From Olsenella profusa (GTDB taxonomy: Bacteria > Actinomycetota > Coriobacteriia > Coriobacteriales > Atopobiaceae), in NCBI RefSeq assembly GCF_016900315.1, contig NZ_JACSNQ010000006.1, positions 1 to 64,000 on the forward strand: a DNA stretch of 64,000 bases, given 5' to 3'. The notes beneath the pieces were generated by a model. The model did not search any database. It saw only the letters and a list, made by a program, of their open reading frames with translations, and was not told the origin of the DNA. Positions 5,480 to 58,599 of the stretch are shown one piece after another (position 1 is the stretch's first letter; every line of letters begins with the position of its first letter). The position numbers were made by a program, and so were the translations under genes.

Positions 5480-5760
5480 GACGATGCACCGTTTGGCTTC
5501 GCAGGCGCTTTCAAAATGGGGACTGTTGCGTCGCCCGAACTGAGCGCGCTTTAGAAATCGAGGTCGTTTCGCCGCCTGCAGCCGGAAGCGCTTTGAAACT
5601 CGCGGCCATCCCGCCTGGCGAGAAGAACCAGGCGCAACGGTCGGCAGTTTCAAAGCAGCTTTTGGTGCGTCGGCCGCAACAACTCGGATTTCGTAAGCAG
5701 GGACCGCACCGCAGGCCGCATCAGGCCGCATTTCGTAAGCACACGCCGCGCCCAAGGGCG
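5480..5760. repeat. repeat cluster F: TTTCAAAG / TTTCGTAAGC units around a GGCGAGAAG core
   Basis: Part of the 1,024-bp gene-free stretch 5242-6265. An inverted pair, GCGCTTTGAAACT (5589-5601) and AGTTTCAAAGC (5646 onward), brackets CCTGGCGAGAAGAACCAGG (5614-5632), a core with its own CCTGG/CCAGG arms. Looser copies occur near 5510 (CGCTTTCAAAA) and 5550 (GCGCTTTAGAAA). Two direct copies of GCATTTCGTAAGCA-like sequence lie at about 5690-5745, and another core at 5777-5785. No credible gene is seen; the open frames here have no ribosome sites or recognisable domains. Confidence 0.6.
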
Positions 5761-5854
5761 CAAAACAGGGCCGTCCGGCGAGAAGAACCTGCGGCGGCGC
5801 CAGGCTGCCCCGGGTACGGGGCGCTTCGTCAGGAGCTGCGCCGCCCGCTGCGCC

Positions 5855-6100
5855 AGGTGCACTCCCGAGCGTCTCCGTGTCAGGTGCACTCCTCAGGTGC
5901 ACTCCCAGACGGGTGCACTTGATGCGAAAAGGGCGTTTCTCGGTGCACCTGAGCCTGTTTTTCGGGAGTGGAGAGTGCACCTGAGGGGTACACCTACGAA
6001 CAGCGTGCACCTGAGGGGGCACACGTCTGCCGAAGCGTCACCTGAGTACACCTGAGGGGGGCACACGTCTGCCGAAGCGTCACCCGAGGGGTGCACCTGA
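5855..6100. repeat. repeat cluster A: GTGCAC array between leuS and guaB
   Basis: Eight GTGCAC hexamers (5857, 5884, 5897, 5913, 5943, 5975, 6005, 6091) plus near copies GTACAC. Left copies read CAGGTGCACTC and right copies GAGTGCACCTG, so the two halves face each other across a centre (about 5920-5942) containing CGAAAA...TTTCTCG. Inside the right half a block starting GGGGGCACACGTCTGCCGAA is tandemly repeated with a period of about 41 bp (6014 and 6056). The same motif family returns at 31906-32166. Confidence 0.75.
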
Positions 6101-6173
6101 CGTGCCCACCCACCCAACGTACCCGCAGGACGCGCGCGGACCGCACCGCAAGCGGCAGCCCGCACCGCAAACG

Positions 6174-6209
6174 CCGCGACCCCGGCACCACGGGGCGTCG
6201 GGGTCGCGG
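6174..6209 (-). terminator. hairpin downstream of guaB
   Basis: CCGCGACCCC (6174-6183) and GGGGTCGCGG (6200-6209) are perfect 10-bp arms about 55 bp after the guaB stop in the direction of transcription. On the minus strand GTTT follows 1-2 nt later, so it could act as a weak intrinsic terminator. A dispersed core copy (6219-6227) lies between it and guaB. Confidence 0.5.
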
Positions 6210-6265
6210 AAACAGGTTCTTCTCGCCGGACGGGTTGGCGGGGCCGCGCGTGGCGGCCACCTCCC

Positions 6266-7777
6266 CTAGCGGTAGCTCACCGAGTGCTGGGAGTCCTTCA
6301 CCACGACGTCGTGCGCGCCGCCCTCGACGATCGAGGTGGAAGAGACGAGCGTGAGGCGGGCCTTCTGCTGCAGCTCCTTGATCGTGAGCGCGCCGCAGTT
6401 GCACATCGTGGACTTGATCTTGTAGACGGTCTGGCGCACGCCCTCCTTGAGCGAGCCCGCGTAGGGCACGTAGGAGTCGACGCCCTCGACGAAGCCGAGC
6501 TTCTGGGCGCCGCCCTGGTCGTAGCGCTGCCAGTTGCGGGCGCGCGCGGAGCCCTCGCCCCAGTACTCCTTCATGTACTGGCCGTTCACGTTGACGCGCT
6601 CGGTGGGGCTCTCGTCGAAGCGGGCGAAGTAGCGGCCGAGCATCATGAAGTCGGCGCCCATGGCCAGCGCGAGCGTCATGTGGTAGTCGTAGACGATGCC
6701 GCCGTCGGAGCACACCGGCACGTAGACGCCCGTCTCCTCGAAGTACTCGTCGCGCGCACGGCACACGTCGATGACCGCGGAGGCCTGGCCGCGGCCGATG
6801 CCCTTGGTCTCGCGCGTGATGCAGATCGAGCCGCCGCCGATGCCCACCTTGACGAAGTCAGCGCCGCAGTCGGCGAGGAAGCGGAAGCCGTCGGCGTCCA
6901 CCACGTTGCCGGCGCCCACCTTGACCGAGTCGCCGTAGTTGGCGCGAATCCAGTCCAGGGTGCGCTTCTGCCACTCGGAGAAGCCCTCGGAGGAGTCGAT
7001 GCAGAGCACGTCGGCGCCGGCCTCCACCAGCAGCGGCACGCGCTCGGCGTAGTCGCGCGTGTTGATGCCCGCGCCCACCATGTAGCGCTTGTTGGCGTCA
7101 AGCAGCTCGTCGGGGTTGGACTTGTGCTGGTCGTAGTCCTTGCGGAAGACGATGCCCACCAGGTGGTCGTTCTCGTCCACGACGGGCAGGGCGTTGAGCT
7201 TGTTGTCCCAGATGACGTCGTTGGCGCGCTTGAGGGTGATGTCCTTGTCGCCCACGATGAGCCGCTCGCGCGGGGTCATGAAGTCGCGGACCTTCTTCTG
7301 GTGGTCGTCACGGGTGGGGCGGTAGTCACGGGAGGTCACGATGCCCAGCAGCCTGCCGTGGGGGGAGCCGTCCTCAGTCACGGGCATGGTCGAGTGGCCG
7401 GTGCGGGCCTTGAGCTCCATGACCTCCTCCATCGTCATGTCCGGCGTGAGGGTGGAGTCGGACTCCACGAAGCCCGCCTTGTGGTCCTTGACGGCCTTGA
7501 CCATGGCCGCCTCCTGGGCCGGCGTCTGGTTGCCGTAGATGAAGGCCAGGCCGCCCTCGATGGCAAGGGCCACGCCCATGTCGACGCCGGAGACGGACTG
7601 CATGATGGCCGAGACCATGGGGATGTTGAGGCTGAGCGAGGGCTCCTCGCCACGGCGGAACTTCACGAGCGGGGTCTTGAGCGACACGTTGGCGGGGATG
7701 TTCTCCGCCGAGGAGTATCCAGGTACGAGTAGATACTCAGAAAAGGTGTGGGACTCCCCCTCGAAGAACGTTGCCAT
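6266..7777 (-). CDS. guaB: IMP dehydrogenase
   Basis: 503 aa. TIM-barrel halves flank a CBS-domain pair (about 100-225). The catalytic loop reads [20 protein letters not shown], with the Cys that forms the thioimidate with IMP; this is the [10 protein letters not shown] variant rather than [24 protein letters not shown] is the phosphate-binding/flap region. It makes XMP, the committed step to GMP. The ATG at 7777 has GAGAGGAG 8 nt upstream; TGC-TACAAT lies at 7831-7839. It stands alone, divergent from the AraC gene. Confidence 0.95.
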
Positions 7778-7830
7778 TCAGTGGCTCCTCTCCCCGCCCG
7801 CGGCGGTCCTGGCACGGCCAAATTTGAGCC

Positions 7831-7839
7831 ATTGTAGCA
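7831..7839 (-). promoter_or_regulatory. extended -10 promoter of guaB
   Basis: On the minus strand the sequence is TGC-TACAAT, about 47 nt upstream of the expected leader and ATG. It is identical to the leuS -10. No clear -35. Confidence 0.6.
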
Positions 7840-7992
7840 TCCGCTTACGGGTTTTCAGGCGCCGCTTGCCGAGAAGCACGTCATATGCGCCGGCAGGCGG
7901 GGCCCGCGGGCGAGCGGCTCGCTCGACGTCACGTTTTCGCAGCCCAAAGCATAACTTTGCGCGAGGCGGCGGGCACGCCCCGGGCGCGCCGC

Positions 7993-8010
7993 TACAATGG
8001 GGCGAGAAGG
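7993..8010 (+). promoter_or_regulatory. -10 box and ribosome site of the AraC-type gene
   Basis: GCTACAAT (7993-7998 for the hexamer) is followed by GGCGAGAAGG (8001-8010). With a start site near 8005 the leader would be only about 12 nt. The dispersed core GGCGAGAAG here doubles as the Shine-Dalgarno sequence (AGAAGG, 6 nt before ATG 8017). Confidence 0.5.
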
Positions 8011-8016
8011 ACGGTG

Positions 8017-8847
8017 ATGTACGTGGACGGCAAGCGCGTGATGACGGCGGTGCGCCAGATCATGGACGAGACCGAGCGGCGCGGGGCGCCGCGCGGGCAC
8101 GGCGTGGCCATGCTCGCATGGTTCGTGGATGAGCGCGGCGGCGACGTCAGCGGCACCGACGAGCTCGACATCGTCTCTGCAAGCATCACGCTTGCGGAAC
8201 TTGCGGGAGACGCCGCCGGCGATGACGCAGAGCGCAAGGTCATGCTCACCGTCTTTGTCCCGAGCAAGCTCCTCGTCCAGGGGCTCACGCAGCTCGCCGC
8301 GCCCGGCACCGACGTCTTCCGCGTGCTCACGACCACCGCAACCAGGCGCCACGCCCCAATCTACGTCGAGGCGCCCGAGCCGGATCGCGACCTCATGTGC
8401 GACCTCTACGCGAACGCCGCCGTAGCCTACGCGGAGCGGCGGCCCGGCTGGGAGCAGGTGGTGGAGGCGCTGGCGCTCGCCCTCGTGGCGGCGACCTCGC
8501 CTTTGGTCCCCGAGGCCGAGCCAGGGTCTGCCGACGACGCGCTCGCGCTGATCCTGTCCGAGGTGGCCGCGCGGCCGGAGAGCGTCACGCTCGGCGAGCT
8601 CGCGGCGCGCTACTCCTACAGCCAGAGCTACCTCTCCGAGCTCATCCACGAGCGCTGCGGCAAGACCTTCGGCGAGCTCGTGCGCGAGAGGCGCATGGAG
8701 CGCGCGGCGATGCTGCTGCGCGCGACCAACCTGCCCGTGGCCGAGGTCGCCCGACGCGTGGGCTACTCCGGCACGAGCAACTTCCACCGGGCGTTTCGGG
8801 AGCAGTTCGGCTGCTCGCCGGCCGAGCTGCGCGCCAAGGGGCGGTAG
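8017..8847 (+). CDS. AraC-family transcriptional regulator (1)
   Basis: 276 aa. The C-terminal AraC/XylS double HTH is clear: first helix pair LGELAARYSYSQSYLSELIH, second LPVAEVARRVGYSGTSNFHR ending FREQFGCSPAELR. The N-terminal 180 residues match no sensing domain I recognise. The ATG at 8017 is chosen because AGAAGG lies 6 nt upstream and a -10 just before it; open codons back to 7885 would overlap the guaB promoter. It converges on the ABC-exporter genes and resembles the second regulator at 13178, so the pair plausibly controls the exporter block (inference). Confidence 0.85.
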   Translation: MYVDGKRVMTAVRQIMDETERRGAPRGHGVAMLAWFVDERGGDVSGTDELDIVSASITLAELAGDAAGDDAERKVMLTVFVPSKLLVQGLTQLAAPGTDVFRVLTTTATRRHAPIYVEAPEPDRDLMCDLYANAAVAYAERRPGWEQVVEALALALVAATSPLVPEAEPGSADDALALILSEVAARPESVTLGELAARYSYSQSYLSELIHERCGKTFGELVRERRMERAAMLLRATNLPVAEVARRVGYSGTSNFHRAFREQFGCSPAELRAKGR

Positions 8848-8938
8848 CGGGCGGCGGGCTCTTCTCGCCGGGACAACGCCGTCCCTCTTGCCGGCCGTCC
8901 TAAGACGCACGGATTTGTGGCACACGCACCGCCGGGTG

Positions 8939-10603
8939 CTAGCGCACGCGGCGCAGCACGCCGTCCTCGATGCGCAGGATCTGGTCTGCCGCGGCGTCGA
9001 GGTCGTCGGAGTGCATGATGGCCACAACGGTCCTGCGACCGCGAAGCCCAGCCAGATAGTCGCAGAGCCGCGCGCTCGTGGCAGCATCGAGGTTGGTAAG
9101 CGGCTCGTCCAGCAGCACCACCGGCTCCGGGCGCGAAAGCGCGCGCAGCAGCCCCAGCTTCTGGCGCTCGCCGAGCGAGAGGTTAACCGTTGAGCCATCG
9201 ATTTGCTTGCCCGCAAAGCCGCTCACGTCAAGCACACGCGCCACCTCGGGGTCGGCCGTGCCGCCGAGCAGGTTGTATGCAAGGTCGCCCGTCACCACGG
9301 GCACCGGGTAGGTGAGGTAGGCGGCATGCGCGAGCTCAGGGGCCAACTCGGCCGTGCCGTCAAGGTCGTCCGGGTCGGAGAGGCCGCGCAGGAAGTCGAG
9401 CAGCATCGACTTGCCTGACCCGTTGGCGCCGAGCAGCACCACGAGCTCGCCGCGACGGATCGTGAGGTCGTGGGTCTCCCATAGGCGACGTCCCCCCTCC
9501 CCGCGCTCGGGCGTGGCCCAGAGCGTGCCGTCGATGCGGACGACGACGTCCGCGCCATCGTCCTTCTCGCCGCCGTCTCCGCCCGCCCCGCGAAGCCCCT
9601 CGAACCCCGACGGCTCCTCGGACGCCGCGGCCAGCTCGGCCAGCCGCTCGGCGTGCACGCGATTGCCACGCACGTTGGCAAGCTTGGAGAGCAGCGTGGA
9701 GAGCGGGCCCTGCGCAAGCTGCGCGATCTGGTAGGCCACGAAGACCTGCCCCGCACCGGCAAGCCCCGCCGAGGCGCGCCACACCTCCGCGGCCATCATC
9801 GCCGCCGCGAGCACGCAGGAGAGCACCGTCGGCAGCTCGTCTATCAGGGCCGCGTTGAACCGGTAGCGCGTGATAAAGGCGAGGTACCCCGCCGAGCGCT
9901 CGCGGTAGCGCGCGGAGAAGAAGCCCTCGGAGGCACTCGCGTTGATCGAGCGCTTCTCCTCCACGATGCGCTTGGACTCGCCGAGCCAGGCATCCTGCGC
10001 GGGGATGCCCTCGCCCTGCAGGCGCGCGAGGCGGCGGGCCGGCAGGCGCAACGCCAAGGCGAAGACGGGCACGTAGACCAAAAGCATCGCGGCGAGAAGG
10101 ACGTCCTGGGCCGCGGCTACGGCCACGAGCGCCGCAAGTGCCAGGCCGGATCCGAGCACGGAGACGTTGAGGTCGGCGTACATGGCGCCGTAGGTCTCCG
10201 TGGAGCCGGTGAGGGCATTGACGTAGTAGCCCTTGTCGTGCCGGGCAACGGCGCGGCTCGGGGCCGAAAGCAGCTGGCGGACCGCGCTCACGGCCGCGCC
10301 CATGGCGCGCGAGACGCCGGCCCAGCGCGGCACCCACGCGCCGAGAAGGACCGTGGCAGCCGCAGCCAGCATGGCGACGGCGAGTGAGGCGGCAAGGCGG
10401 AGCGTGACGTCCTCGCCGGCGGCGAGCGCGTCGATGATGGAGCCGACGGCGAGGCTCGCGGCAGCAGAGGCAACGGTGGCAAGCGCCACGCCGAGAGCGC
10501 GGGCGAGGTTTTTGGGCGTGAGGTCGAGGACGGGGTAGGCGGCGGACGCGCGACGGGTTGCGGCGGGCGCGGTTGCGGCGGCATCGGCGGTGACGCTAGG
10601 CAT
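8939..10603 (-). CDS. ABC exporter, fused membrane and ATPase domains
   Basis: 554 aa. About six membrane segments (about 30-300), then the linker EEPSGFEGLRGAGGDGGEKDD, then an ATPase domain: Walker A GANGSGKS, signature LSLGE (variant of LSGGQ), Walker B VVLLDEP. It is the only subunit of the three-gene block that carries an ATPase. Its start overlaps the end of the upstream gene (10596) by 8 bp, so translation is coupled. Substrate unknown. The linker contains the peptide GEKD, encoded by the dispersed core GGCGAGAAGGAC. Confidence 0.85.
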   Translation of the reverse strand: MPSVTADAAATAPAATRRASAAYPVLDLTPKNLARALGVALATVASAAASLAVGSIIDALAAGEDVTLRLAASLAVAMLAAAATVLLGAWVPRWAGVSRAMGAAVSAVRQLLSAPSRAVARHDKGYYVNALTGSTETYGAMYADLNVSVLGSGLALAALVAVAAAQDVLLAAMLLVYVPVFALALRLPARRLARLQGEGIPAQDAWLGESKRIVEEKRSINASASEGFFSARYRERSAGYLAFITRYRFNAALIDELPTVLSCVLAAAMMAAEVWRASAGLAGAGQVFVAYQIAQLAQGPLSTLLSKLANVRGNRVHAERLAELAAASEEPSGFEGLRGAGGDGGEKDDGADVVVRIDGTLWATPERGEGGRRLWETHDLTIRRGELVVLLGANGSGKSMLLDFLRGLSDPDDLDGTAELAPELAHAAYLTYPVPVVTGDLAYNLLGGTADPEVARVLDVSGFAGKQIDGSTVNLSLGERQKLGLLRALSRPEPVVLLDEPLTNLDAATSARLCDYLAGLRGRRTVVAIMHSDDLDAAADQILRIEDGVLRRVR

Positions 10604-11669
10604 GGCAGGCTCCTTCGGTTACGGGTGACAGGGTCGTAGGCGCGGCGGCGCTTGCCGCGCGGTCGCGCTTCCCGGAAGACGCGCCGTGGGAGGTCCTTCT
10701 CAGGCGCTCGAAGCCGGAGGGCTCGGCGGCCTCGCGCTCGAGCGCGCGCAGCAGGTCAATGTTCACGCGATTGGCGGCGTAGATGCTCTGGGCCTGGCAG
10801 AGGTAGCTCATCGGCAGGGCGAGCAGCCCCGCGAGCTGCCAGGCCACCACGAGCGTGCCGGCGCCCGCACCGCCAGCCACGAGCGCGCAGACCACGACGG
10901 CGAGCGCCTGCACGAGCAGTCCGGAGGCGTACGGAAGCTCGTTGGAGAGCGTGTCCGCCAGCAGGTAGCCGCGGCGGAAGCGCCGGTACTTCTCGGTGCG
11001 CTCCTGATAGCGGTGCTCGTAGAAGCCCTCGGCCCCGGCCGCCACGGCGGCGCGGCGCTCCTCCACCACGCGACGGCCCTCGTCGAGCCAGGCCTCGCGC
11101 GGCGGCATCATCTGCGTCTGGAGCCGGTTGGCCACGTGCGACGGCGCCCACACGATGATCACGTAGGCCGGCGCGCAGGCCGCGAGCACCACAGCGAGCG
11201 CCGGGTCCTCGAGCGCGGCCATCGCAAGCAGCACCGCGAGCGAGAGCACCGCGCCTGGCACGTACGCACTCATGGCCACGACGATGGCACCGTGCGCGAA
11301 GGAGGCTAGGTTCACGAGGTTGAGGTAGTGACCGGCGTCGTGGCGGGCAAAGGCACGCTGCGGCATGGCGAGTACGAGCTCGATGGCGCGCGCGGAGGAG
11401 TCCACCTCCCGGCGCAGGTTGGCGCGCTCGGGCAGCCAGCCGGCGAGCGCAAAGGTGGCGAGCTGCGCGGAGAGCGAGAGCGCCAGGTAGGCGAGAAGCA
11501 CGGGCGCCGCCGCGGCCGCATCAAGCTCTCCGGAGGCAACGTCGCTCACAAGCGAGCCGGCGACGAGCGCGGAGGCGGCGGAGAGCAGCGTGCCCAGACT
11601 GGCGCCGAGCGCGAGCGCCAGATAGGCGCCCCTCAGCTCGAAGACGGGAAACTGCGTGCGGTGTCTCAT
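10596..11669 (-). CDS. ABC exporter membrane domain without an ATPase domain (1)
   Basis: 357 aa. It starts MRHRTQFPVFEL with AAAGGAG 7-8 nt upstream. It aligns along its length with the membrane half of the neighbouring complete exporter (shared FARHDAGHYLN-type, EAWLDEGRRVVEERR and AEPSGFERLRR blocks), with about six membrane segments. It stops about 30 residues after PSGFERLRR, just where the ATPase domain begins in the partner. No Walker motifs are present. It probably pairs with or regulates the 8939 product; it could also be a decaying exporter. Confidence 0.75.
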   Translation of the reverse strand: MRHRTQFPVFELRGAYLALALGASLGTLLSAASALVAGSLVSDVASGELDAAAAAPVLLAYLALSLSAQLATFALAGWLPERANLRREVDSSARAIELVLAMPQRAFARHDAGHYLNLVNLASFAHGAIVVAMSAYVPGAVLSLAVLLAMAALEDPALAVVLAACAPAYVIIVWAPSHVANRLQTQMMPPREAWLDEGRRVVEERRAAVAAGAEGFYEHRYQERTEKYRRFRRGYLLADTLSNELPYASGLLVQALAVVVCALVAGGAGAGTLVVAWQLAGLLALPMSYLCQAQSIYAANRVNIDLLRALEREAAEPSGFERLRRTSHGASSGKRDRAASAAAPTTLSPVTEGACHA

Positions 11670-11779: not shown

Positions 11780-12020
11780 AGCGCCATGCCCATCCGACCG
11801 AAATTCCGGCGCATTGCCCCGCGCCGCCGCTTCGGAGGGCCCTTCTCGCCTGGTGCCGAAATCGCCGCCTTTGGACGCTGCGCCGAAATCGCCAGGAGTG
11901 TGCGTTTCCGGCGCCAGAATCGGCGCCTCCGTGCGTAAGCCCGCGCACACCTCCGGCGATTTTGGCGCACCAAACGCACACTCCCCCGGATTCCGGCACG
12001 GCGCACACTCCCGCCCAATC
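11780..12020. repeat. repeat cluster B: AACGCACAC / GATTCCGGCGC family
   Basis: This fills most of the 349-bp gap between two exporter genes. Repeated pieces are CGAAATCGCC, AGTGTGCGTTTCCGGCGCC and the opposite-strand forms GGCGATTTTGGCGCACC and AAACGCACACTCCCCCGGAT. The copies face each other, and a CTTCTCGCC core lies at 11842-11850. The same long motif recurs at 14090-14250 and 42660-42830. No gene is seen. Confidence 0.65.
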
Positions 12021-14080: not shown

Positions 14081-14250
14081 CTTCTCGCCTGGCGCCGAAA
14101 TCAGCGGGGATGTGCGTCTGCGGTGCCAAAATTACCCGCAATGCGCGCGGGCGCCGCCAAAAAACGAGGGCCTGTGCACCGCTACGCGCACAGGCCCCGC
14201 AAATCAGGCGCTCAGAACGCACACACCCGGCGATTCAGCCGGCGATTCAG
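14081..14250. repeat. repeat cluster B', between convergent genes
   Basis: This 3'-3' gap opens with CAGGCCCTTCTCGCCTGG (core with short flanking arms), then CGCCGAAATCAGCGGGGATG, whose reverse complement matches the AACGCACA-CCCC-GCGATT motif of clusters B and G. GAACGCACACACCCGGCGAT follows near 14217 and GGCGATTCAG twice at its end. It probably also serves as the bidirectional 3' end of both flanking genes. Confidence 0.6.
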
Positions 14251-23140: not shown

Positions 23141-23993
23141 GCTCGAGGCGGGCGTCCCAGCGCCACCAAAGCGCCACGGCGAGAAACACCCCACAGGTCA
23201 CGAAGATGTCCGCGACGTTGAAGACGGCGAAGTCGAAGAGCGTGGTGTCGAAGAAGTCCGTCACGGCTCCGGCGGCCACGCGGTCGATGGCGTTGCCGAT
23301 GCCGCCGCCCGCCACGGCCGCCACCGTGAGCACCAGCGAGAGCGGGGCGTCGGTACGTCTGAGCGCAAGCCACGCGCCGCCGGCCGCGATGACCGCAGCG
23401 ATGGCCACGAAGACGGGGCCCGCGCCCTCACCGAGCGAGAAGGCAGCGCCCGTGTTGTAGACGAGGGTGAGGTCCATGACGCCCGGGACGAGCGTCACGG
23501 GCTCGCCCGGGACGAGCGCGGCGCGCGCCGCGGCCTTGGTCAGCTGGTCGAGAAGGACCACCAGGACGGCGGCCAGGCAGAAGAGGGCGAGCCGCGCCGC
23601 CGGGCGGGCGCCGGAGGCGGCACCAGGGTCGGCGACGGGGCCGGCGCACTGTTTCTGGACGTTCTTCTCGCCAGAACCGTCCGGGGACGGTGCGCCCGGG
23701 GTGACGTCAGGGCCGGCGCACCGTTTCCGGTCGGAATTGAACCCCAAACCGTCCGAAGACGGTGCACCGGAGGCGGTACCCGAGGCGGCACACCGTTTCT
23801 GGACGTTCTTATCGCCAGAATCGTCCGGTGACGGTGCGCGTGGGGTGGCGTCAAGGCCACCACCGGGGGCGACGCACCGCTTCCGGTCGGAACTGGATCC
23901 CAAACCGTCCGAAAGCGGTGCGCCAGAGACAGCGCCCTGAGCAGAGCCCTGGGCGCCGCCCGACCCCGCGCGTGTGTCGTGAAGAGGGGCCAC
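23097..23993 (-). CDS. lspA: lipoprotein signal peptidase with a repeat-encoded N-terminal extension
   Basis: 298 aa from a GTG start. The last 170 residues are a normal LspA: four membrane segments, DQLTKAAAR, YNTGAAFSL, and the catalytic aspartates in NAIDR and FNVADI. It cleaves lipoprotein signal peptides in the membrane. The first 125 residues are hydrophilic and repetitive (RKRC and VQKRC blocks) and are encoded by four 52-bp palindromic units. No ATG, GTG or TTG occurs in frame between the last unit and the core. The GTG at 23993 has GGAG 5 nt upstream and lies 2 bp after the ileS stop, so coupled translation through the repeats is the simplest reading. Confidence 0.85.
   Translation of the reverse strand: MAPLHDTRAGSGGAQGSAQGAVSGAPLSDGLGSSSDRKRCVAPGGGLDATPRAPSPDDSGDKNVQKRCAASGTASGAPSSDGLGFNSDRKRCAGPDVTPGAPSPDGSGEKNVQKQCAGPVADPGAASGARPAARLALFCLAAVLVVLLDQLTKAAARAALVPGEPVTLVPGVMDLTLVYNTGAAFSLGEGAGPVFVAIAAVIAAGGAWLALRRTDAPLSLVLTVAAVAGGGIGNAIDRVAAGAVTDFFDTTLFDFAVFNVADIFVTCGVFLAVALWWRWDARLERERAQADDGAPVAR
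23644..23923. repeat. repeat cluster C: four 52-bp palindromic units inside lspA
   Basis: Units at 23644-23695, 23716-23767, 23788-23839 and 23872-23923, each exactly 52 bp, with outer arms near GCGCACCGTTTCCGG and its complement. Starts are 72, 72 and 84 bp apart, all multiples of three. Units alternate between two centres: TTCTTCTCGCCAGAAC (units 1 and 3; unit 3 has TTCTTATCGCC) and GGAATTGAACCCCAAA-like (units 2 and 4). The same 52-bp unit recurs at 58128-58506. Confidence 0.85.
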
Positions 23994-31905: not shown

Positions 31906-32166
31906 GTGCACGTCAGGCGCGCCCTGACGGTCCCTGCCGCAGGCGCACTCGTTAGGTGTGCGCCCCCCGGCCCAGGTGCACCCGTCAAGTGCACCCACAT
32001 CCCAGGTGCACCCCTCAAGTGCACCCATACCTCGGTACACTTGACGAGAAAAACGTTCTTCTCGGTGCACTTAACGCGTTTTGAGCGGGTTTGTCAGTGC
32101 ACTTGACGAGTGCACCTGAGAAATGCAGGAGTTCTCCCGAAGAGGGAGTGCACTTGAGAAGTGCAC
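31906..32166. repeat. repeat cluster A': paired GTGCAC sites, between convergent genes
   Basis: Ten GTGCAC hexamers: 31906, 31976, 31989, 32006, 32019, 32065, 32097, 32110, 32148, 32161. Four pairs lie exactly 13 bp apart, giving a 19-bp dyad near GTGCAC-TTGAnnA-GTGCAC. Left pairs read GTGCACCCSTCAAGTGCAC and right pairs GTGCACTTGAnnAGTGCAC, facing each other across CGAGAAAAACGTTCTTCTCG (32045-32064). The 428-bp gap 31888-32315 contains only this cluster, a weak G6/C6 hairpin right after the transpeptidase stop (31887-31903) and the ffh terminator. Confidence 0.8.
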
Positions 32167-40444: not shown

Positions 40445-40492
40445 GTCCTTCTCGCCGTCCTTCTCGCCGTCCTTCTCGCCGTCCTTCTCGCC
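40445..40492. repeat. 12-bp tandem repeat x4: GTCCTTCTCGCC
   Basis: Four perfect head-to-tail copies of GTCCTTCTCGCC, the same 12-mer that is dispersed singly through the window. This shows the motif itself is the amplified unit. It lies in the 502-bp plsX-rpmF gap. Confidence 0.9.
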
Positions 40493-40548
40493 AGCGTCAC
40501 GGCCGCAGCCAGCGTCACGACCCGGCCTGCGCATCACGGCAAGCCGCC

Positions 40549-40755
40549 GTTAGGAATTGGCGCTCCTTAGTTCGTTTGGCCCCCATTTGGTTAGCTTTTG
40601 CCGCACCTTTTGCCCGCGCGGACTAAACATGCCGCGGTTCTTAACGCAGGCGTTGGCCGCCCCGCTCCCGCGGACCAAACATGCCGCTATTCTTAACGCA
40701 GACGTTGATCACCCTATTCCCGCGAACCAAACATGCCGCGATTCCTAACGGAGGC
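40549..40755. repeat. repeat cluster E: 52-bp tandem repeat with an inverted copy
   Basis: Tandem units start at 40618, 40670 and 40722 (period 52): GCGGACCAAACATGCCGCGA followed by TTCTTAACGCAG. The third is cut after about 34 bp. On the left, CCGTTAGGAATTGGCG and TAGTTCGTTTGG (40549-40579) are the reverse complement of parts of the unit, giving inverted halves again. No gene is seen. Confidence 0.75.
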
Positions 40756-42496: not shown

Positions 42497-42680
42497 GCGC
42501 GCGGGATTTCGCGGGGTTGCGTGCCTCGGGGTGGGCGCGCGGGATTTCGCGGGGTTGCGTGCCTCGGGGTGGGCGCGCGGGATTCCGCGGGGTTGCGTGC
42601 CTCGGGGTGGGCGCGCGGGATTCCGCGGGGTTGCGTGCCTCGGGGTGGGCGCGCGGGATTCCGCGGGAGTGTGTACTTTG
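42497..42680. repeat. repeat cluster G, left half: 38-bp tandem repeat x5
   Basis: Five copies with a period of exactly 38 bp, GGGATTTC/GGGATTCC at 42503, 42541, 42579, 42617 and 42655, each GCGCGGGATTCCGCGGGGTT followed by GCGTGCCTCGGGGTGG. Copies 1-2 have TTT and copies 3-5 TTC, and the last is degenerate after GCGGGAG. They lie in the 604-bp gap 42345-42948. The open frames encode only repeated Gly/Arg/Ala peptides without a ribosome site, so I do not call a gene. Confidence 0.9.
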
Positions 42681-42835
42681 GGTGCGAGAAGAACGGCGTC
42701 TGTGCGCGGCGCCGCGCACAACCCATGCGATTCAGGCGGCGCGAACGCACAACCCCAGCGATTCCGGCGCAAGGGGCTCGGACGCGGGGCGCGAACGCAC
42801 AACCCCGGCGATTCCGGCGCAAGGGGCGCGCGGCA
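42680..42835. repeat. repeat cluster G, centre and right half
   Basis: GCGAGAAGAACGG (about 42685) and a palindrome CTGTGCGCGGCGCCGCGCAC form the centre. To the right come GCGCACAACCCATGCGATTC, then two copies of GAACGCACAACCCC followed by GCGATTCCGGCGC (42743 and 42793, period 50). Their reverse complement matches the left 38-bp unit, so the halves are inverted. The motif is the one in clusters B and B'. Confidence 0.75.
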
Positions 42836-46347: not shown

Positions 46348-46351
46348 GCGC

Positions 46352-52333: not shown

Positions 52334-52354
52334 TCACGGCTCCCTGATAGCGCT

Positions 52355-52398
52355 CCTGCGGGTTCTTCGCAGACAGTCCTGCGGGTCTTTCCCGCAGG
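52355..52398 (-). promoter_or_regulatory. alternative-hairpin leader of lysA
   Basis: CCTGCGGG occurs at 52355-52362 and 52378-52385, and CCCGCAGG at 52391-52398. The last can pair with either, giving mutually exclusive hairpins just upstream of lysA, while CTGCG/CGCAG closes a third. This has the logic of an attenuator. It does not resemble the lysine riboswitch. Confidence 0.4.
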
Positions 52399-52558
52399 CC
52401 CACCCGACGACCGCGCCCGGCCGCCGAGTTCGGCGGGCTCGCCTCCCCGCGGGATCTGCGCCTGCCGGCTCCCCCGCGGGCCTTCTCGCCCGCGCCTCTA
52501 TCGAGTGAGGACACTCTATCACAGCGGGGCGCCGCCGGGCGCCGAGCCGTCCCACGTT

Positions 52559-52566
52559 GATATACT
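52559..52566 (+). promoter_or_regulatory. -10 box of the M20 deacetylase gene
   Basis: GATATACT with TATACT at 52561-52566, about 30 nt before the ATG. No clear -35. Confidence 0.5.
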
Positions 52567-52595
52567 CGAAACGATTTTTCCGGGAGGGAGGCCCC

Positions 52596-53882: not shown

Positions 53883-53939
53883 GAGCGGATCCGCCGCTCG
53901 GGCGCGGGTGCCCCCCTACGGCGCTTCCCCGCCACGCCC

Positions 53940-54160
53940 TCGGCAGGGCACGTACACCCTCCCCTAGGGTACGTACACTGCCGCGGCGTCGACGTCCTTC
54001 TCGCCACCTCAACTACCTGCGGAAACGTCGGGCGGCCCGGCGAGAAGGGCGGTAGGAAGTGTACGTACCCTGCCGGGTGGTGTACGTACCCTGCCGGGGG
54101 CGTGACGGGAAGTGTACGTACCCTTCCGGAGGGCGCGGCGGGGTGTACGTACCCTAAAGC
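53940..54160. repeat. repeat cluster D: GTACGTAC array, between convergent genes
   Basis: Left: two copies of GCACGTACACCCT/GGGTACGTACACT. Centre (about 53981-54047): CGACGTCCTTCTCGCC, then ACCTCAACTACCTGCGGAAA, CGTCGG and GGCGAGAAG, a large imperfect palindrome with two opposed cores. Right: four copies of GTGTACGTACCCT (54060, 54081, 54113, 54143). The 333-bp gap holds nothing else. A second copy lies at 55360-55610. Confidence 0.85.
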
Positions 54161-54215
54161 GTGGCGCCCGTAGGATACGGGGAAGCCGGAAGGCTGTTCT
54201 CAAAAGCTGCCTGCG

Positions 54216-55172
54216 CTAGGGAATCTGCATGAGCTGGGAAATGAGCTCGCCCTGAAGCCGGCGAAAGCTCGGGTCATCCGGGAGAGAGCGACCCGCCTTG
54301 GCCATGACCTTGCCGACGAGCTCGGTTCGCATGGCCTCCCTCTTGAGCATGCCAAACGTAATCGATCGCACCATCCAGCCAAGGTCCCGAAGCCCCTCGT
54401 TGCGAACCGCGTCGGAGTCAACCTGGGAGGGCGTGGAGTGGAACTCGTAGCTGTCGTACTCAAAGATGATGCCAAACTCCGGCCAGCAGAGGTCGACGAC
54501 AAGATACGGCTTGCCCAGCGCCCTCTGCAGCGAGGGAGGGATCTCCACCCTGGCGTTAAGTAGGGGACGCGGAAGCCCACATCCGCCCAGCTCAACCGGG
54601 AGGATGAAGAAGAGGACCAGCACGGTCTCCATCGGCGAGCGGGAGCCGTCCACGACGTACACAAGTGCCTCTCTCGCCCGCCTTGCCCCGTATCCGTGGT
54701 TATCTGCAAAGAGGTCGGTGAGCTCGGCGACCGTCACAAGCGGCGGACGCCCGAAGAAGCCACGGCATGCCAGCGGGGAGCGCGTGTAGCGGCCGCAGAT
54801 CTCCATTCCAATGCTGGCGGTTCGCGCAAGGCTCGACCGCGCCGCCATCTGCTGGAGGCAGAACCCCGGCGAGGCCAGGAGCACGTCATCGGTCAGACGG
54901 CAGAGTGCCCCTTCCGGCAGAGGCGTCGACCAGATGTGGCTTCTGATGCGTCGAGAGCGAACCCGCGCCGCCTCTCCCGAAACAAGGATGTGAAGCGGAT
55001 GCTCCTCGGTCGCCTCAAGACGTGCGGCGGAGAGGTCAATCGTGCCAAGCTCGCTGACGCCCGCGAGGGACCAGTCGAGGTTGGCAGGCAGCTGCGCCAG
55101 ACGTTCAATACGTCCGGGCAGGCCCGTCTCTCCCCATCGGGCAAGTGCGGATATGTCGCAAACGGCAATCAT
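54216..55172 (-). CDS. DUF559-like protein with nuclease-fold C-terminus, function unknown
   Basis: 317 aa (a GTG three codons earlier is possible; no clear ribosome site). The N-terminal half is unrecognised. The C-terminal part (about 215-290) reads GKPYLVVDLCWPEFGIIFEYDSYEFH, which I split as VDLCWPE and FEYDSYEFH. It matches the D-x(n)-E-x-D pattern of DUF559/very-short-patch-like PD-(D/E)XK folds. Such proteins are often multi-copy in actinobacteria and sometimes linked to defence. Codon use is less GC-biased than in its neighbours. It is flanked on both sides by near-identical copies of cluster D in the same orientation. Confidence 0.6.
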   Translation of the reverse strand: MIAVCDISALARWGETGLPGRIERLAQLPANLDWSLAGVSELGTIDLSAARLEATEEHPLHILVSGEAARVRSRRIRSHIWSTPLPEGALCRLTDDVLLASPGFCLQQMAARSSLARTASIGMEICGRYTRSPLACRGFFGRPPLVTVAELTDLFADNHGYGARRAREALVYVVDGSRSPMETVLVLFFILPVELGGCGLPRPLLNARVEIPPSLQRALGKPYLVVDLCWPEFGIIFEYDSYEFHSTPSQVDSDAVRNEGLRDLGWMVRSITFGMLKREAMRTELVGKVMAKAGRSLPDDPSFRRLQGELISQLMQIP

Positions 55173-55359
55173 GGTCTGCACATTGTCCCGAAAGGGGCTT
55201 CCGGCTTGCCGACAACAGGCTGACGGTTAGCTTTCCTTAGTCATTCTCCCCGCTCCAGCGAAGGACAGCCACGCAGCTAGGACTCTTTGACCGATTTGTC
55301 CTTCAGCCACTGCGGCAAAGGGGAGCCCGTACGCCTACACAGAACGCACAAGAGGCGCC

Positions 55360-55610
55360 TTGAGGGTACGTGCACCCCCTGCCACTCTCCCCAAGGTTAC
55401 GTACACCCTCCCCCAGGGTACGTACACTGCCGCGGCGCCGACGTTCTTCTCGCCACCTCAACTACCTGCGGAAACGTCGGACGGCCCGGCGAGAAGGACG
55501 CCGAGAAGTGTACGTACCCTAAAGCGGGGTGTACGTACCCTTTCGGGGGCGTGGCTAGAAGTGTACGTACCCTGCGGGGGGCGCAATGGGGGTGTACGTA
55601 CCCTGCCCGA
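55360..55610. repeat. repeat cluster D': second copy of the GTACGTAC array
   Basis: Left: three copies of AGGGTACGTACAC type (55363, 55394, 55416). Centre (55438-55496): CGACGTTCTTCTCGCC, ACCTCAACTACCTGCGGAAA, CGTCGG and GGCGAGAAGG, almost identical to the centre at 53981. Right: four GTGTACGTACCCT copies (55508, 55530, 55561, 55592). The rest of the 544-bp gap 55173-55716 is featureless apart from the rpmB terminator. Confidence 0.85.
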
Positions 55611-55651
55611 AAGCGCGCCTAAAGCGCGCGGCGCCCGAAGCCAGCCGCAAC

Positions 55652-55680
55652 AAAAAAAGAGGCCGCCCGAGGACGGCCTC
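55652..55680 (-). terminator. intrinsic terminator of rpmB
   Basis: Stem GAGGCCG (55659-55665) with CGGCCTC (55674-55680), followed on the minus strand by seven U (A7 at 55652-55658). It lies about 37 bp after the rpmB stop. Confidence 0.9.
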
Positions 55681-55716
55681 CAGCCAAATCCGTTGTGCGC
55701 AGAACTAGCTGTCAGG

Positions 55717-55905
55717 CTAGCTGCGGGCGATCTTGCCGGACTTGAGGCAGCGGGAGCAGACGTTGGCCTTGCGACGGTGACCGTCAACGACCACGGTGAC
55801 GCGCTGGATGTTCGGCTTGAACGTGCGGTTCACCACACGGTGGGAGTGGCTGATGGAATGACCGGCAACGGCGTGCTTGCCGCAGAACTCACAGACCTTG
55901 GACAT
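55717..55905 (-). CDS. rpmB: 50S ribosomal protein bL28
   Basis: 62 aa: MSKVCEFCGKHAVAGHSISH followed by HRVVNRTFKPN and a C-terminal CSRCLKSGKI. The two Cys pairs suggest the zinc-binding C+ form. GAGGAGG lies 7 nt upstream and TGC-TATAGT at 55966-55974. A monocistronic transcript with its own terminator. Confidence 0.96.
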   Translation of the reverse strand: MSKVCEFCGKHAVAGHSISHSHRVVNRTFKPNIQRVTVVVDGHRRKANVCSRCLKSGKIARS

Positions 55906-55965
55906 GCTCGTACCTCCTCGGGGGCGCGGCGCTCTTCTCGCGCCCGCAACTTTCACAGCTCGCCA

Positions 55966-55996
55966 ACTATAGCACATGCTCCACCAGCCGCAACGA
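55966..55996 (-). promoter_or_regulatory. rpmB promoter
   Basis: TTGCGG, a 16-bp spacer ending TGC, then TATAGT (55971-55966). The best -35/-10 pair in the window. Confidence 0.6.
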
Positions 55997-56139
55997 GAAA
56001 CCCCAAGATATTGTGTCGTTTCTCTGGTGGCGCGGGGGCACGCAGGCGCAGGGGCACGCAGGTGTGGCGGCGGGACGGCAACGGCCACGACGGCCGCCAC
56101 GACCAGAGGGCCTCGCGGGGCGCCCGACCCGCCGGCCCC

Positions 56140-57480
56140 CTACCGCAGCAGGAACGCCGCCACAGCACCGGAGCGGCACGCGACCTCGGCGTCGGGGCTC
56201 GTCACCACGTTGGAGATCCCCAGGTCGTCGAGAAGCCCCATCGGCTTGTCCTCAAGCTCCCACCGCATGCCGCGCTCGTCGACGCGCGTGTCCGGCGCCA
56301 CGGCCACCGCGGAGAACGTGCGGCCCACGGCGTCCGCGCCAAGCCGCCAGGCCCGCTCGCCGGCCGCCGAGACGATCCTCATCTCGTAGCCGTCCTCCAC
56401 GAGCTGCGCCGACGCCGTCCCCGCGCCCGCGAGCTGCCCCACCACCGCAAGCGCGTGGTCGGGACGGCCACCGGAGGCGCACGTGAGCGTCACGGCGAGC
56501 GGCGCGCCGCGGCGGGCGGCCTCGTGCCGGGCGCAGTCGAGCGCGAGCGCGAGGTCCGTGGCGTATTTCTCCGAGGGGAAGCTCACGCAGGTGCGCGCCG
56601 CCGCCCGCGCCCAGGCAGCGGCCTCCCCCGAGGCGGAGTCGGAGTCCCCGCAGAAGACGTCCGGGGCCACGCCCGCCGCCCGGCACACGTCGGCCCCACC
56701 GTCGGCGCAGACCACGTAGTCGGCCTCGTCGGCAAGCGACGCCACCAGCGCGGGCGAGCTCGGCTCGGGCGAGCCTGCCACCACGAGCGCGCGCAGCGGC
56801 TCCCCAGCCGCGGGCGCCGGGCGCGCGTAGTCGCGCAGCAGCGGGAGGGAGAGCTCGGCGAACCCGTGGACGAAGACGTCACACCACGGGCGGACGTCCT
56901 CCTCGCGCCGGCCGTCGTGGTCGTTCATGAGGCCGACCACGTAGAAGCCGGCCCGACGCGCCGTCCGCACGCCGAAGGGCGCGTCCTCGAAGACCCACGT
57001 GCCCTCCCGCGACGTGCCCAGCCGGCGCAGCGCCTCCAGGTAGACGTCGGGGAACTCCTTGTCGCGCCCGCCGACCTCCTCGGTGCTCACCACGTCCGTG
57101 AAGAAGCCGTCGAGGCCGTGCGCCCTCAGGCAGAAGAGCAGCTCGCGACGGGGCGTCGACGACGCCACGATCATCGGCACGCCCGCGGCGGAGAGCTCCT
57201 CCAGAAACGCGCGCGCCCCGGGCATGAGCGCCACGTCGTGCTCGTAACCGTCACGGACGTGGGCGCAGAGCGTCTCGTAGACCTCCTCGGTCGACGAGCC
57301 CATGCCGTACTTGTCATGGAAGAGCCGGCAGGCCTCGGCCAGCGCCATCGGCTCCACCTCGTCGATCGGCGCGCCCGGCGAGTCGTAGTGCCGGTAGAGC
57401 CACTCGTAGGCGTGCGACCACATGCCCATCGAGTCCACGAGCGTGCCGTCGCAGTCAAAGATCGCTCCCGTGACGTCCAT
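56140..57480 (-). CDS. fusion of a HAD hydrolase and thiamine pyrophosphokinase
   Basis: 446 aa. Residues 1-225 are a beta-PGM-like HAD hydrolase (IFDCDGTLVDS, VASSTPRRE, VFEDAPFGVRTARRAG). Residues about 235-446 are a thiamine pyrophosphokinase (VVCADGGADVC, VFCGDSDSAS, FPSEKYATDLALAL, GGRPDHALAV), which makes thiamine diphosphate; the usual acidic residue after EK is Tyr here. Joining a phosphatase to this kinase is uncommon. The start MDVTGAIFDCDG has GGGGG close by; upstream codons (with RSGEKND) are leader. thiN near rpmB is a known neighbourhood. Confidence 0.85.
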   Translation of the reverse strand: MDVTGAIFDCDGTLVDSMGMWSHAYEWLYRHYDSPGAPIDEVEPMALAEACRLFHDKYGMGSSTEEVYETLCAHVRDGYEHDVALMPGARAFLEELSAAGVPMIVASSTPRRELLFCLRAHGLDGFFTDVVSTEEVGGRDKEFPDVYLEALRRLGTSREGTWVFEDAPFGVRTARRAGFYVVGLMNDHDGRREEDVRPWCDVFVHGFAELSLPLLRDYARPAPAAGEPLRALVVAGSPEPSSPALVASLADEADYVVCADGGADVCRAAGVAPDVFCGDSDSASGEAAAWARAAARTCVSFPSEKYATDLALALDCARHEAARRGAPLAVTLTCASGGRPDHALAVVGQLAGAGTASAQLVEDGYEMRIVSAAGERAWRLGADAVGRTFSAVAVAPDTRVDERGMRWELEDKPMGLLDDLGISNVVTSPDAEVACRSGAVAAFLLR

Positions 57481-57495
57481 CTGTCCCCCGTCGTT

Positions 57496-57504
57496 CTTCT
57501 CGCC
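57496..57504. repeat. core motif upstream of the HAD-TPK gene
   Basis: CTTCTCGCC within GTTCTTCTCGCC, 16 bp upstream of the start. The rest of the gap to 57694 holds an AT-rich divergent promoter area with TATCCT (57654-57659) as a possible -10 for the FmdB gene. Confidence 0.55.
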
Positions 57505-57693
57505 TGACCTGTCCCGCCTGGGTCCGCCGTGCTGGGCCGGCCCGTCGGCCACGTCTTACCCCGGGCCAGGTGCCTTTCCCACCGCGCAGATATGATGATA
57601 TACGCGCCTGGCGACAAAAACCTCGCGTTCGCCGATGCGCTGGTTGGGTAAAGTATCCTGCGGTTTGAGTGAATCGTTTTCTCGGAGGGAACC

Positions 57694-57921
57694 ATGGCTC
57701 GTTACGACTATCACTGTCCGGACTGCGGCGCGACGTTCGAGGTGGAGCACCCCATGAGCGCGCACCCCAAGGTCAGCTGCCCCAGCTGCGGCCACGAGGC
57801 CGAGCGCGTCTTCGACCCCTCCGGGATCGTCTTCAAGGGGTCCGGCTTCTACAACACCGACGAGCGCAACTCCGGAGCCAGCAAGTCCGAGAAGTGCGAG
57901 AGCTGCGGCGCCTGCGACTAG
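57694..57921 (+). CDS. FmdB-family zinc ribbon protein
   Basis: 75 aa. It begins MARYDYHCPDCGATFEV, with the second pair CPSCGHEAERVF, the CxxC...CxxC zinc ribbon of the FmdB regulatory family; FKGSGFYNTD is the conserved tail. A third Cys pair, CESCGAC, lies at the C-terminus. GGAGGGAACC precedes the ATG. Function of the family is unclear (putative regulators). Confidence 0.9.
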   Translation: MARYDYHCPDCGATFEVEHPMSAHPKVSCPSCGHEAERVFDPSGIVFKGSGFYNTDERNSGASKSEKCESCGACD

Positions 57922-57939
57922 GTCTTGTCAGGCGGCCCG

Positions 57940-57991
57940 CCGAAGCCCCGCGCCGAAACCCCACGCCGAAGCCCCACGCCGAAGCCCCACC
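57940..57991. repeat. 13-bp tandem repeat x4
   Basis: CCGAAGCCCCACG at 57940, 57953, 57966 and 57979 with one or two changes. It starts 19 bp after the FmdB stop, inside the 678-bp gap 57922-58599. Confidence 0.8.
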
Positions 57992-58003
57992 CGCGTGCGA
58001 AAT

Positions 58004-58043
58004 AATCCCCATCTGTGCGTTCTACTTGCACAGATGGGGATTT
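58004..58043. terminator. bidirectional intrinsic terminator after the FmdB gene
   Basis: A perfect 15-bp stem, AATCCCCATCTGTGC (58004-58018) with its complement (58028-58042), loop 9 nt, flanked by AAATA and TTT. It would stop transcripts from either side. Confidence 0.85.
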
Positions 58044-58127
58044 GTGTGCCGGGGCGAGGCGTGGGCGCCGCCCGAGGTGACGCGCCCGGAAGACGTACCC
58101 AGGTCGGGCGGCGCACTCAGGTGGGCG

Positions 58128-58506
58128 GCGCACCGCTTCCGGACGGTTTTGGGCCGCAGAGTGTCCTAAAACGGTACGTCCCTCTGGACGCGCACTGTTC
58201 CCGGACAATCCGAGGCCGCAGAACGTCCGAAGACGGTGCGTACTCACGGCGCACCGTTTTAGGACGGTTTGGAGTTTCATTTCGTCCGGAGACGGTATGT
58301 CCTTCTTGGCCCGCACCGTCTCCGGACGGTCTGGGGCCACAAACCGTCCGAGAACAGTACGCTCCACATGGCGCACCGTCTTCGGACGGTTCGGGGAGTT
58401 CGTTCCGCCAATTCAGAGGACCTGTTCCGTCCTAAAACAGTACGCCCAAAGAGGACACACCGTTCTTGGACGGTCTGAGATCGAATTCCGTCCTAAAACG
58501 GTGCGC
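58128..58506. repeat. repeat cluster C': six 52-bp palindromic units
   Basis: Regular units at 58128-58179, 58190-58241, 58249-58300, 58311-58362 and 58455-58506, each exactly 52 bp. A sixth starts at 58371 and is stretched by 23 bp to about 58445. The consensus is GCGCACCGTYTYCGGACGGT, a 12-bp centre, then the complement. Two cores, GGCGAGAAGGACC, follow at 58515 and 58547. The unit is the one embedded in lspA. No gene is seen. Confidence 0.9.
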
Positions 58507-58599
58507 TCCGCGGCGGCGAGAAGGACCATCGGCCCGCAGCCGCGGCGGCGAGAAGGACCGCGGACCCCGCCCCCTCGCGCGCGTCCCCCGCGCCCCGCG

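What the first reader, a model, noticed from the sequence alone, without database searches (positions are those of the whole stretch)
5480..58510. A family of 3'-end repeat clusters with inverted halves around a GGCGAGAAG core
Ten gap regions (5480-5760, 5855-6100, 11780-12020, 14081-14250, 23644-23923, 31906-32166, 40445-40755, 42497-42835, 53940-54160/55360-55610, 58128-58506) each carry many copies of one cluster-specific motif. In most, left copies are inverted relative to right copies and the centre or flank contains CTTCTCGCC/GGCGAGAAG. Every cluster touches the 3' end of at least one gene. Different motifs with the same layout suggest one mechanism acting on different sequences, for example small non-autonomous elements, 3'-end RNA structures or arrayed protein sites. 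I know no described family with this layout.
Basis: partly seen in the sequence, partly recalled or inferred. Interest (0 to 1): 0.85.

Follow-up and report, generated by a model that had tools for sequence, protein, structure and literature searches.

The report
Uptake-like word amid phased DNA-site arrays
A gut actinobacterium related to Olsenella carries two overlapping features for which I found no description: a 12-letter DNA word repeated hundreds of times in the way that "take up my own kind's DNA" signals are, and small arrays of repeated sites, mostly behind genes, spaced by whole turns of the DNA helix as protein-bound sites would be.

Summary
The clusters are real, but two phenomena are mixed in the finding. 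(1) The "core" is a genome-wide word, GGCGAGAAGRAC: 855 copies in 2.07 Mb against 1 for the reversed word. One-base variants at inner positions number 0-3 and copies lie in both orientations. In genes it forces the tetrapeptides GEKN/GEKD: 60, against a mean of 1.26 for other orders of the same residues, 60 of 60 spelled by the exact word. This is the signature of a DNA uptake sequence; comEA, comEC and a probably Tad-type pilus locus are present. A 2025 paper names Neisseriaceae and Pasteurellaceae as the only families known to recognise such motifs. (2) The clusters are about seven families of short-site arrays: 63 in 549 kb sampled. In the eight families tested (own and congeners), spacings are multiples of 10.35 bp (R=0.78, 0 of 20,000 nulls); family U fits poorly. 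One family keeps a conserved centre across the genus while its arms change by species. RNA-hairpin covariation is absent. Best reading: helically phased protein-binding sites in small dispersed elements that turn over quickly. Word and arrays are statistically independent (24/60 vs 17/43 gaps). No function was tested.

The parts
5465..5760 (.). Array, family T (GCTTTGAAAATCGCGG-like units 41-42 bp apart, then inverted copies), with a word copy near the centre
   Evidence: gap 5242-6265 beats 100/100 shuffles
5617..5628 (+). Word GGCGAGAAGAAC inside family T array
5777..5788 (+). Word GGCGAGAAGAAC
5855..6101 (.). Array, family U (GTGCACCTGA; left copies inverted against right)
11780..12020 (.). 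Array, family V (GCGCCGAAATCGCCG-like) with GGCGAGAAG at 11842 (minus)
14081..14250 (.). V-like cluster by eye; not above shuffles
   Evidence: 17 and 22 of 100 shuffles reach it
23647..23920 (.). Array, family P (CACCGTTTTCGGACG / inverse, alternating, +- distance 31)
23661..23672 (-). Word GGCGAGAAGAAC in a family P spacer
31906..32166 (.). Array, family U, between an L,D-transpeptidase gene and ffh (convergent)
   Evidence: not seen in the same gap of nine related loci
40445..40492 (-). Four head-to-tail copies of GGCGAGAAGGAC, 12 bp apart
40549..40749 (.). Array, family R (GTTAGGAATCG / inverse, spacing 52)
42497..42835 (.). V-like array by eye: left tandem units, right inverted units, around GCGAGAAGAAC at 42684
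53945..54155 (.). Element, family Q: 2 left and 4 right GTGTACGTACCCT arms, inner arms 93 bp apart
53997..54022 (+). Conserved family Q centre CTTCTCGCC-N7-CTACCTGCGG
55363..55604 (.). Element, family Q: 3 left and 4 right arms, inner arms 93 bp apart
55446..55471 (+). Conserved family Q centre
58131..58503 (.). Array, family P, 11 sites scored, alternating
58515..58558 (+). Two copies of GGCGAGAAGGAC beside the family P array

Best explanation
Two systems overlap in the gene gaps. (1) GGCGAGAAGRAC is a DNA-uptake-sequence-like word. Copies accumulate because DNA carrying it is preferentially taken up and recombined by natural transformation, probably through a Tad-type pilus, ComEA and ComEC. 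Shown: abundance, tight consensus, orientation independence, effect on proteins, presence in most sampled genomes of the genus, ComEA/ComEC and a pilus-type ATPase in the genome. Inferred: uptake itself, the Tad assignment and the receptor. (2) The clusters are small dispersed elements made of several copies of a 10-24 bp site. Copies are placed by whole helical turns so that a sequence-specific protein (unidentified; one cognate protein per family) can bind cooperatively along one face of the DNA, bend or loop it, and form a nucleoprotein complex behind genes. Shown: phasing in eight tested families, conserved centre with changing arms in one family, no RNA covariation, gain and loss in one orthologous gap, avoidance of promoter gaps. 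Inferred: the protein, the bending or looping, and any effect on transcription or chromosome folding.
For: Word: 855 against 1 for the reversed control. 333-673 copies in 7 of 7 other same-genus genomes drawn (an eighth, G190, has 40). One-mismatch variants 0-3 each at the inner positions. Not fixed to transcription: 27 sense and 20 anti in tandem gaps, 29 convergent, 26 divergent. GEK[ND] 60 against 1.26 mean, 60/60 exact codons. ComEC in 40 of 41 Atopobiaceae; comEA-comEC pair; T2SSE ATPase with T2SSF and SAF neighbours. Arrays: 41/103 gaps beyond shuffles; spacing period 10.35 bp, R=0.78 for 63 spacings and 0.69 for 36 family-distinct ones, 0/20,000 nulls each; seen in G096 and G116 with unrelated motifs; family Q inner distance exactly 93 in 17 of 21 arrays, kept even where the centre sequence differs (C1:52373); centre present in 13 of 16 genus genomes searched while arms differ by species; no pairing covariation; divergent gaps avoided.
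Against: No uptake, binding or transcription was measured. G190, a congener with ComEC and a T2SSE protein, has only 40 copies of the word, and G060, with 5 copies, has both genes too, so gene content does not discriminate. Word and arrays are statistically independent. No binding protein was identified. Spacings within one array are not independent, and the families were picked by eye before the phase test. Families U and V were not in that test; U spacings include 13, 38, 39, 45 and 70 and give only R=0.37 at 10.35 bp.
Confidence: 0.55

Rival explanations
1. The arrays are 3'-end RNA hairpins (terminators or stabilisers); the repeats pair in the transcript.
For: Inverted copies, 3' location, and inverted arms 51-61 bp long.
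Against: Family P arms show less pairing at variable positions than shuffled arms (0.353 vs 0.453 Watson-Crick, 17 units). Nested left/right copies in T (2 arrays), R (3) and Q (16) are no more complementary than non-nested ones (p 0.34, 0.48, 0.59). Period 10.35 fits B-DNA rather than A-form RNA. No array of the window reached an Rfam gathering score.
Confidence: 0.12
2. The arrays are REPIN/BIME-type non-autonomous repeats moved by a Y1 (RAYT) transposase.
For: Fixed-distance inverted pairs, alternating arrays, extragenic, species-specific. Two Y1_Tnp proteins in the genome. In G022 all 9 matches of one arm type (4 complete pairs) lie within 28 kb, as REPs near a young RAYT can.
Against: No array motif was seen in the 1.0-1.6 kb read on each side of the two Y1 genes, which carry other repeats (an R array lies about 2.8 kb from one of them). 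Pairing is not conserved. Congener G013 has no Y1_Tnp match but carries family-Q elements.
Confidence: 0.2
3. The arrays are miniature DDE transposons whose arms are transposase sites, as at Tn7 ends.
For: Inverted multi-site arms around a centre; presence or absence at an orthologous gap; pairs of Q elements 0.8-3 kb apart in several places.
Against: No target duplication in 21 own and 12 congener copies. In G022 and G043 all 15 complete arm pairs are 88-89 bp apart. The frames between three close G043 elements look by eye like comF and a DUF559-type gene, not a transposase. P and S arrays have no left and right end.
Confidence: 0.1
4. The word is a Chi/KOPS-like or nucleoid-protein site, not an uptake signal.
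For: Abundance and DNA-level constraint alone do not name the function.
Against: Orientations are interleaved and balanced (413/442; strand strings), unlike polar Chi or KOPS. Close inverted pairs occur.
Confidence: 0.25

Closest known systems
DNA uptake sequences (Neisseriaceae DUS) and uptake signal sequences (Pasteurellaceae USS)
   Same: 9-12 nt asymmetric word, hundreds of copies, both strands, in genes and gaps, inverted pairs, shared within a lineage (PMC12616744 and PMC3630211, passages read)
   Different: Different sequence; a monoderm actinobacterial lineage; pilus probably of Tad type; uptake not measured
BIMEs / REPINs (REP-RAYT repeats)
   Same: Regular spacing, alternating or inverted pairs, extragenic, species-specific (PMC2817692 abstract and passages; PMC3733652 passages; PMC3116915 listing only)
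   Different: Pairing not conserved; array motifs not found beside the genome's Y1 transposase genes; spacings quantised in helical turns; conserved centre with changing arms
Lrp/AsnC-type regulator site arrays
   Same: Sites two or three helical turns apart on one face (PMC2995911, passages)
   Different: About 200 arrays per genome by extrapolation, behind genes, many unrelated motifs; no protein identified
Tn7-type transposon ends (recalled)
   Same: Several binding sites per end, ends inverted
   Different: No cargo, no transposase, no target duplication found

Membership tests
DUS/USS | Short word with hundreds of copies, far above chance | tested here: met
   855 vs 1 control; top de novo 12-mer of the own sample
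DUS/USS | Perfect copies far outnumber one-base variants | tested here: met
   69 and 59 exact vs 0-3 for each variant at inner positions
DUS/USS | Orientation independent of transcription and not polar | tested here: met
DUS/USS | Present in coding DNA at the cost of amino-acid choice | tested here: met
   GEK[ND] 60 vs 1.26, 60/60 exact codons
DUS/USS | Inverted pairs at gene ends | tested here: inconclusive
   Close pairs within 150 bp: 10 (-+), 5 (+-), 14 (++), 9 (--) of 208 neighbours; word density 3.45 per kb in convergent, 1.99 in tandem, 1.46 in divergent gaps
DUS/USS | Competence machinery | tested here: met
   ComEC, ComEA, T2SSE; but also in genomes with few copies of the word
DUS/USS | Preferential uptake of word-bearing DNA | not testable with these tools
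   needs transformation assays
REP/BIME/REPIN | Pairing of palindromic or inverted units preserved by complementary changes | tested here: not met
REP/BIME/REPIN | Same repeat flanks a RAYT gene | tested here: not met
   in 1.0-1.6 kb on each side the two Y1 genes carry other repeats, by eye
REP/BIME/REPIN | Extragenic, regular, alternating or inverted | tested here: met
DDE MITE | Target-site duplication | tested here: not met
   33 elements
DDE MITE | Autonomous partner with the same ends | tested here: inconclusive
   three genomes, one arm type, all 15 complete pairs 88-89 bp apart; no transposase by eye between three close G043 elements
Chi/KOPS | Polar orientation along replichores | tested here: not met
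   balanced and interleaved; tested on contigs, not on a closed chromosome rich in the word
Lrp-type site array | Cognate Lrp protein | not tested
   no candidate searched

The most novel reading that the evidence does not exclude
A third, independent uptake-sequence lineage exists in Actinobacteria (Olsenella/Thermophilibacter, Atopobiaceae), using a Tad pilus. The same gaps carry a previously undescribed class of elements: helically phased site arrays, several with an uptake word in a spacer or centre, which spread between genomes by riding on transformation while their sites evolve quickly with fast-changing binding proteins.
Probability: 0.35. Interest if true: 0.93.

Novelty: new variant of a known kind. 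Interest (0 to 1): 0.85.

Why it matters
[quoted passage not shown] A monoderm lineage with such a word would suggest that the strategy arose a third time, would offer a marker of gene exchange in gut bacteria, and would give an entry to a sequence-specific receptor on a Tad-type pilus. The phased arrays, roughly 200 per genome by extrapolation, would be an abundant repeat class whose geometry is conserved while its sequence is not, which makes a direct test (change spacing by half a turn) possible.

Tried and rejected
Rejected or weakened: RNA hairpins; RAYT-driven REPs; DDE MITEs; replication polarity of the word (an apparent all-plus run for G028 in the list is probably a listing limit; the 80 kb examined has both strands of the 9-letter core). 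No link between word and arrays. Looked for a cognate gene in the 55 kb around the G022 cluster of family-Q copies; nothing stood out by eye. The 321-aa frame between the two window Q elements has no Pfam or PHROG match. Of the G190 family-Q flanks, none gave a clear ortholog beside an own Q element in the 305 kb held then, so orthologous placement of Q could not be judged there. Gene calls on L158 alone came out on the wrong strand and were replaced by reading the frames.

Literature: searches for an actinobacterial or Gram-positive uptake sequence, for the letters GGCGAGAAG (267 papers hold them, only 15 listed, none of these listed looking related), for Olsenella repeats and for phased dispersed arrays (97 papers, 10 listed) listed nothing describing this. 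Most subscription papers are outside the library, which also states that no bioRxiv preprints are held.
Full report
What was checked. The window is a stretch of contig C53 of an unnamed 2.07 Mb, 56-contig genome, 69% G+C. Loci fetched with the L,D-transpeptidase gene place it near Olsenella and Thermophilibacter, family Atopobiaceae (names are those of the records). Genes were called with a codon-usage script of my own, so gene borders are approximate.

The clusters exist. Repeat coverage of every gene gap of 120 bp or more in 246 kb (window plus contigs C1-C3) was compared with 100 dinucleotide shuffles: 41 of 103 gaps beat all shuffles on direct or inverted repeats, where about 2 are expected. 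Nine of the eleven regions named lie in such gaps, 55360-55610 is reached by 1 of 100, and 14081-14250 is not above chance. Of gaps with GGCGAGAAG 24 of 60 are repeat-rich, of gaps without it 17 of 43, so the core and the repeats are independent.

The core is a genome-wide word. GGCGAGAAGRAC occurs 855 times (413 and 442 by strand) against 0 and 1 for the reversed word; 28 of these are in the window. It is the top over-represented 12-mer of the genome sample, and its A/G forms are top or near the top in four congeners. In 246 kb there are 69 and 59 exact copies of the two forms, while each one-base variant at inner positions is found 0 to 3 times. The eight-letter core is about 3.4 times denser between genes (122 in about 51 kb) than in them (138 in about 195 kb). 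Copies between genes show no fixed orientation to transcription; they are densest in convergent gaps (3.45 per kb, against 1.99 in tandem and 1.46 in divergent gaps). Copies in genes are read mostly as Gly-Glu-Lys-Asn/Asp: 60 such tetrapeptides in 145,009 residues against a mean of 1.26 for the 46 other orders of the same residues (largest, DGEK, 12), and all 60 are spelled by the exact word. In G190, which has only 40 copies (reversed control 2), there are 2 in 110,768 residues. Seven of seven other same-genus genomes hold 333 to 673 copies; some related genera hold 44 to 291, most of the order fewer than 20. G190 is the exception among the eight congeners counted.

What the word is. Constraint acts on DNA, not on RNA or protein: orientation is free, synonymous codons are not used, and amino-acid order is bent to the word. 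Known drivers of such words are uptake sequences; Chi- and KOPS-like sites are polar (recalled), and this word is not. ComEC is present, a helix-hairpin-helix ComEA lies directly before it, and a T2SSE ATPase lies beside T2SSF and SAF-domain genes, which I read as a Tad-type pilus locus; no Flp pilin was searched for. A review passage says that Micrococcus luteus, an actinobacterium, transforms with ComEA, ComEC and Tad/Flp pili (PMC6370729, passages read). Against it, ComEC and T2SSE also occur in genomes poor in the word, such as G190 (40 copies) and G060 (5 copies). A 2025 paper states that only Neisseriaceae and Pasteurellaceae are known to recognise such motifs (PMC12616744, passages read). 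Searches listed no actinobacterial case.

The arrays. By eye and then by motif scan I defined seven families in the own genome: P (CACCGTTTTCGGACG), Q (GTGTACGTACCCT), R (GTTAGGAATCG), S (GTGACTTTGAGCGAG), T (GCTTTGAAAATCGCGG), U (GTGCACCTGAG), V (GCGCCGAAATCGCCG). In 549 kb there are 63 arrays (Q 21, P 13, T 9, R 7, S 7, U 5, V 1). Parts of this sample were chosen because they held Q or P. In the 246 kb not so chosen there are 26, about 220 per genome by extrapolation. P and S alternate in orientation with about 31 bp per step; R units are mostly 41 bp apart with a 45-bp centre in 5 of 7 arrays; T units are 41-42 bp apart; Q has inner arms exactly 93 bp apart in 17 of 21 arrays (the rest 92, 92, 94, 111) and outer arms mostly at 21-22 or 31-32 bp.

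Phasing. For eight families (own P, Q, R, S, T; two from G096; one from G116), 63 same-orientation spacings fit a period of 10.35 bp with R=0.78 and offset near zero. After collapsing to 36 family-distinct values R is 0.69. None of 20,000 jittered sets reached either value. The motifs in G096 and G116 are unrelated to those of the own genome, yet their spacings are 30-31, 41, 60-61, 83-84, 95, 122-124 and 135, with one of 29. One own Q array (C1:52373) has the 93-bp inner distance with a largely different centre sequence. Results against: the values within a family are not independent, the families were picked by eye, and families U and V were left out; U spacings (13, 22, 30-32, 38, 39, 41, 45, 51, 64, 70, 80-83, 96) give only R=0.37 at the same period. 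Fixed geometry with free spacer sequence points to proteins bound on one face of B-DNA for the eight families tested.

Not RNA. Variable positions of family P arms pair less, not more, than shuffled arms (17 units). Left and right copies that would be partners in a folded transcript are no more complementary than non-partners in T (2 arrays), R (3) and Q (16). Q-family arms do change together on both sides between species, but tandem copies on the same side change as well, as binding sites would.

Evolution. Family P is found in none of 100 other family genomes at one mismatch. The exact Q arm occurs 92 times in the own genome, 7 times in G190 and once in one of the other 99 genomes, which is no more than the reversed control gives. 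The Q centre, CTTCTCGCC-N7-CTACCTGCGG at up to 2 mismatches, is in 13 of 16 genus genomes (27 in the own, 18 in G043, 17 in G197; reversed control 0 in all 16) and in 15 of 105 others at 1 to 3 places, near chance. I read 40 of the 73 centre matches in ten congeners, picked by eye as the better ones, so the share with arms is not an unbiased estimate: in all but one (L149) the centre is flanked by inverted arms, and the arm sequence differs by species and subfamily. The arm GGGTGTGTACGAAGTT forms 15 complete pairs in G022 and G043, 13 at 89 and 2 at 88 bp, besides some unpaired matches. In the gap between the L,D-transpeptidase gene and ffh, the own genome has a U array, Olsenella sp. An293 (L015) a Q-type element, L020 a single inverted pair with CGAAACGGAGC arms, L019 a short inverted repeat, and the other six of nine comparable loci show by eye at most a single hairpin, including L012, whose ffh is 96% identical. 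Arrays are thus gained and lost quickly, on the evidence of this one gap and of the species-specific families. No target duplication was found.

Position. Only 2 of 61 placed arrays are in divergent gaps, against 56 of 308 gaps (p=0.0018).

Closest known. P and S arrays look like BIMEs (regular, alternating repeats; PMC2817692 abstract and passages), and minimal Q elements look like REPINs, but pairing is not preserved, and the two Y1 transposase genes of the genome carry other repeats in the 1.0-1.6 kb read on each side. Sites two or three turns apart are known for Lrp-type regulators (PMC2995911, passages read).

Verdict. The finding is real and richer than described: an uptake-like word and an independent set of mostly helically phased site arrays. 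Both need bench tests; the binding proteins and the receptor are unknown.

Noticed in passing
window 52340-52508 (minus): Lysine riboswitch (RF00168, 67 bits, gathering 30).
   Followed up: no
window 62479-62775 (minus): Sub-threshold cspA thermoregulator match (59.4 bits, gathering 78) over a 67-aa gene.
   Followed up: no
L042 5245-6117 and L043 9371-10225: Two RAYT-like Y1 transposase genes of the own genome with their own flanking repeats containing GGGGACAG or GAGACAGGGGGACGG.
   Followed up: partly
L034:17871-18344 and L035:18409-18960 (G116): Two hairpin elements with arms TTATCTACCACTAGA and a similar loop, MITE-like.
   Followed up: no
L029:9709-10133 (G056); own C1 21077-21654: A hairpin sharing AAAAGAGAGACTA in two species; in G056 it is enclosed by inverted word copies, in the own genome followed by nine CTGTGAGGTT repeats.
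   Followed up: no
G022:C71:42194-70413: All 9 matches of one Q arm type in G022 lie within 28 kb of a 2.1 Mb genome.
   Followed up: partly
window 54219-55181 (minus): 321-aa open frame between the two Q elements without any Pfam or PHROG match.
   Followed up: partly
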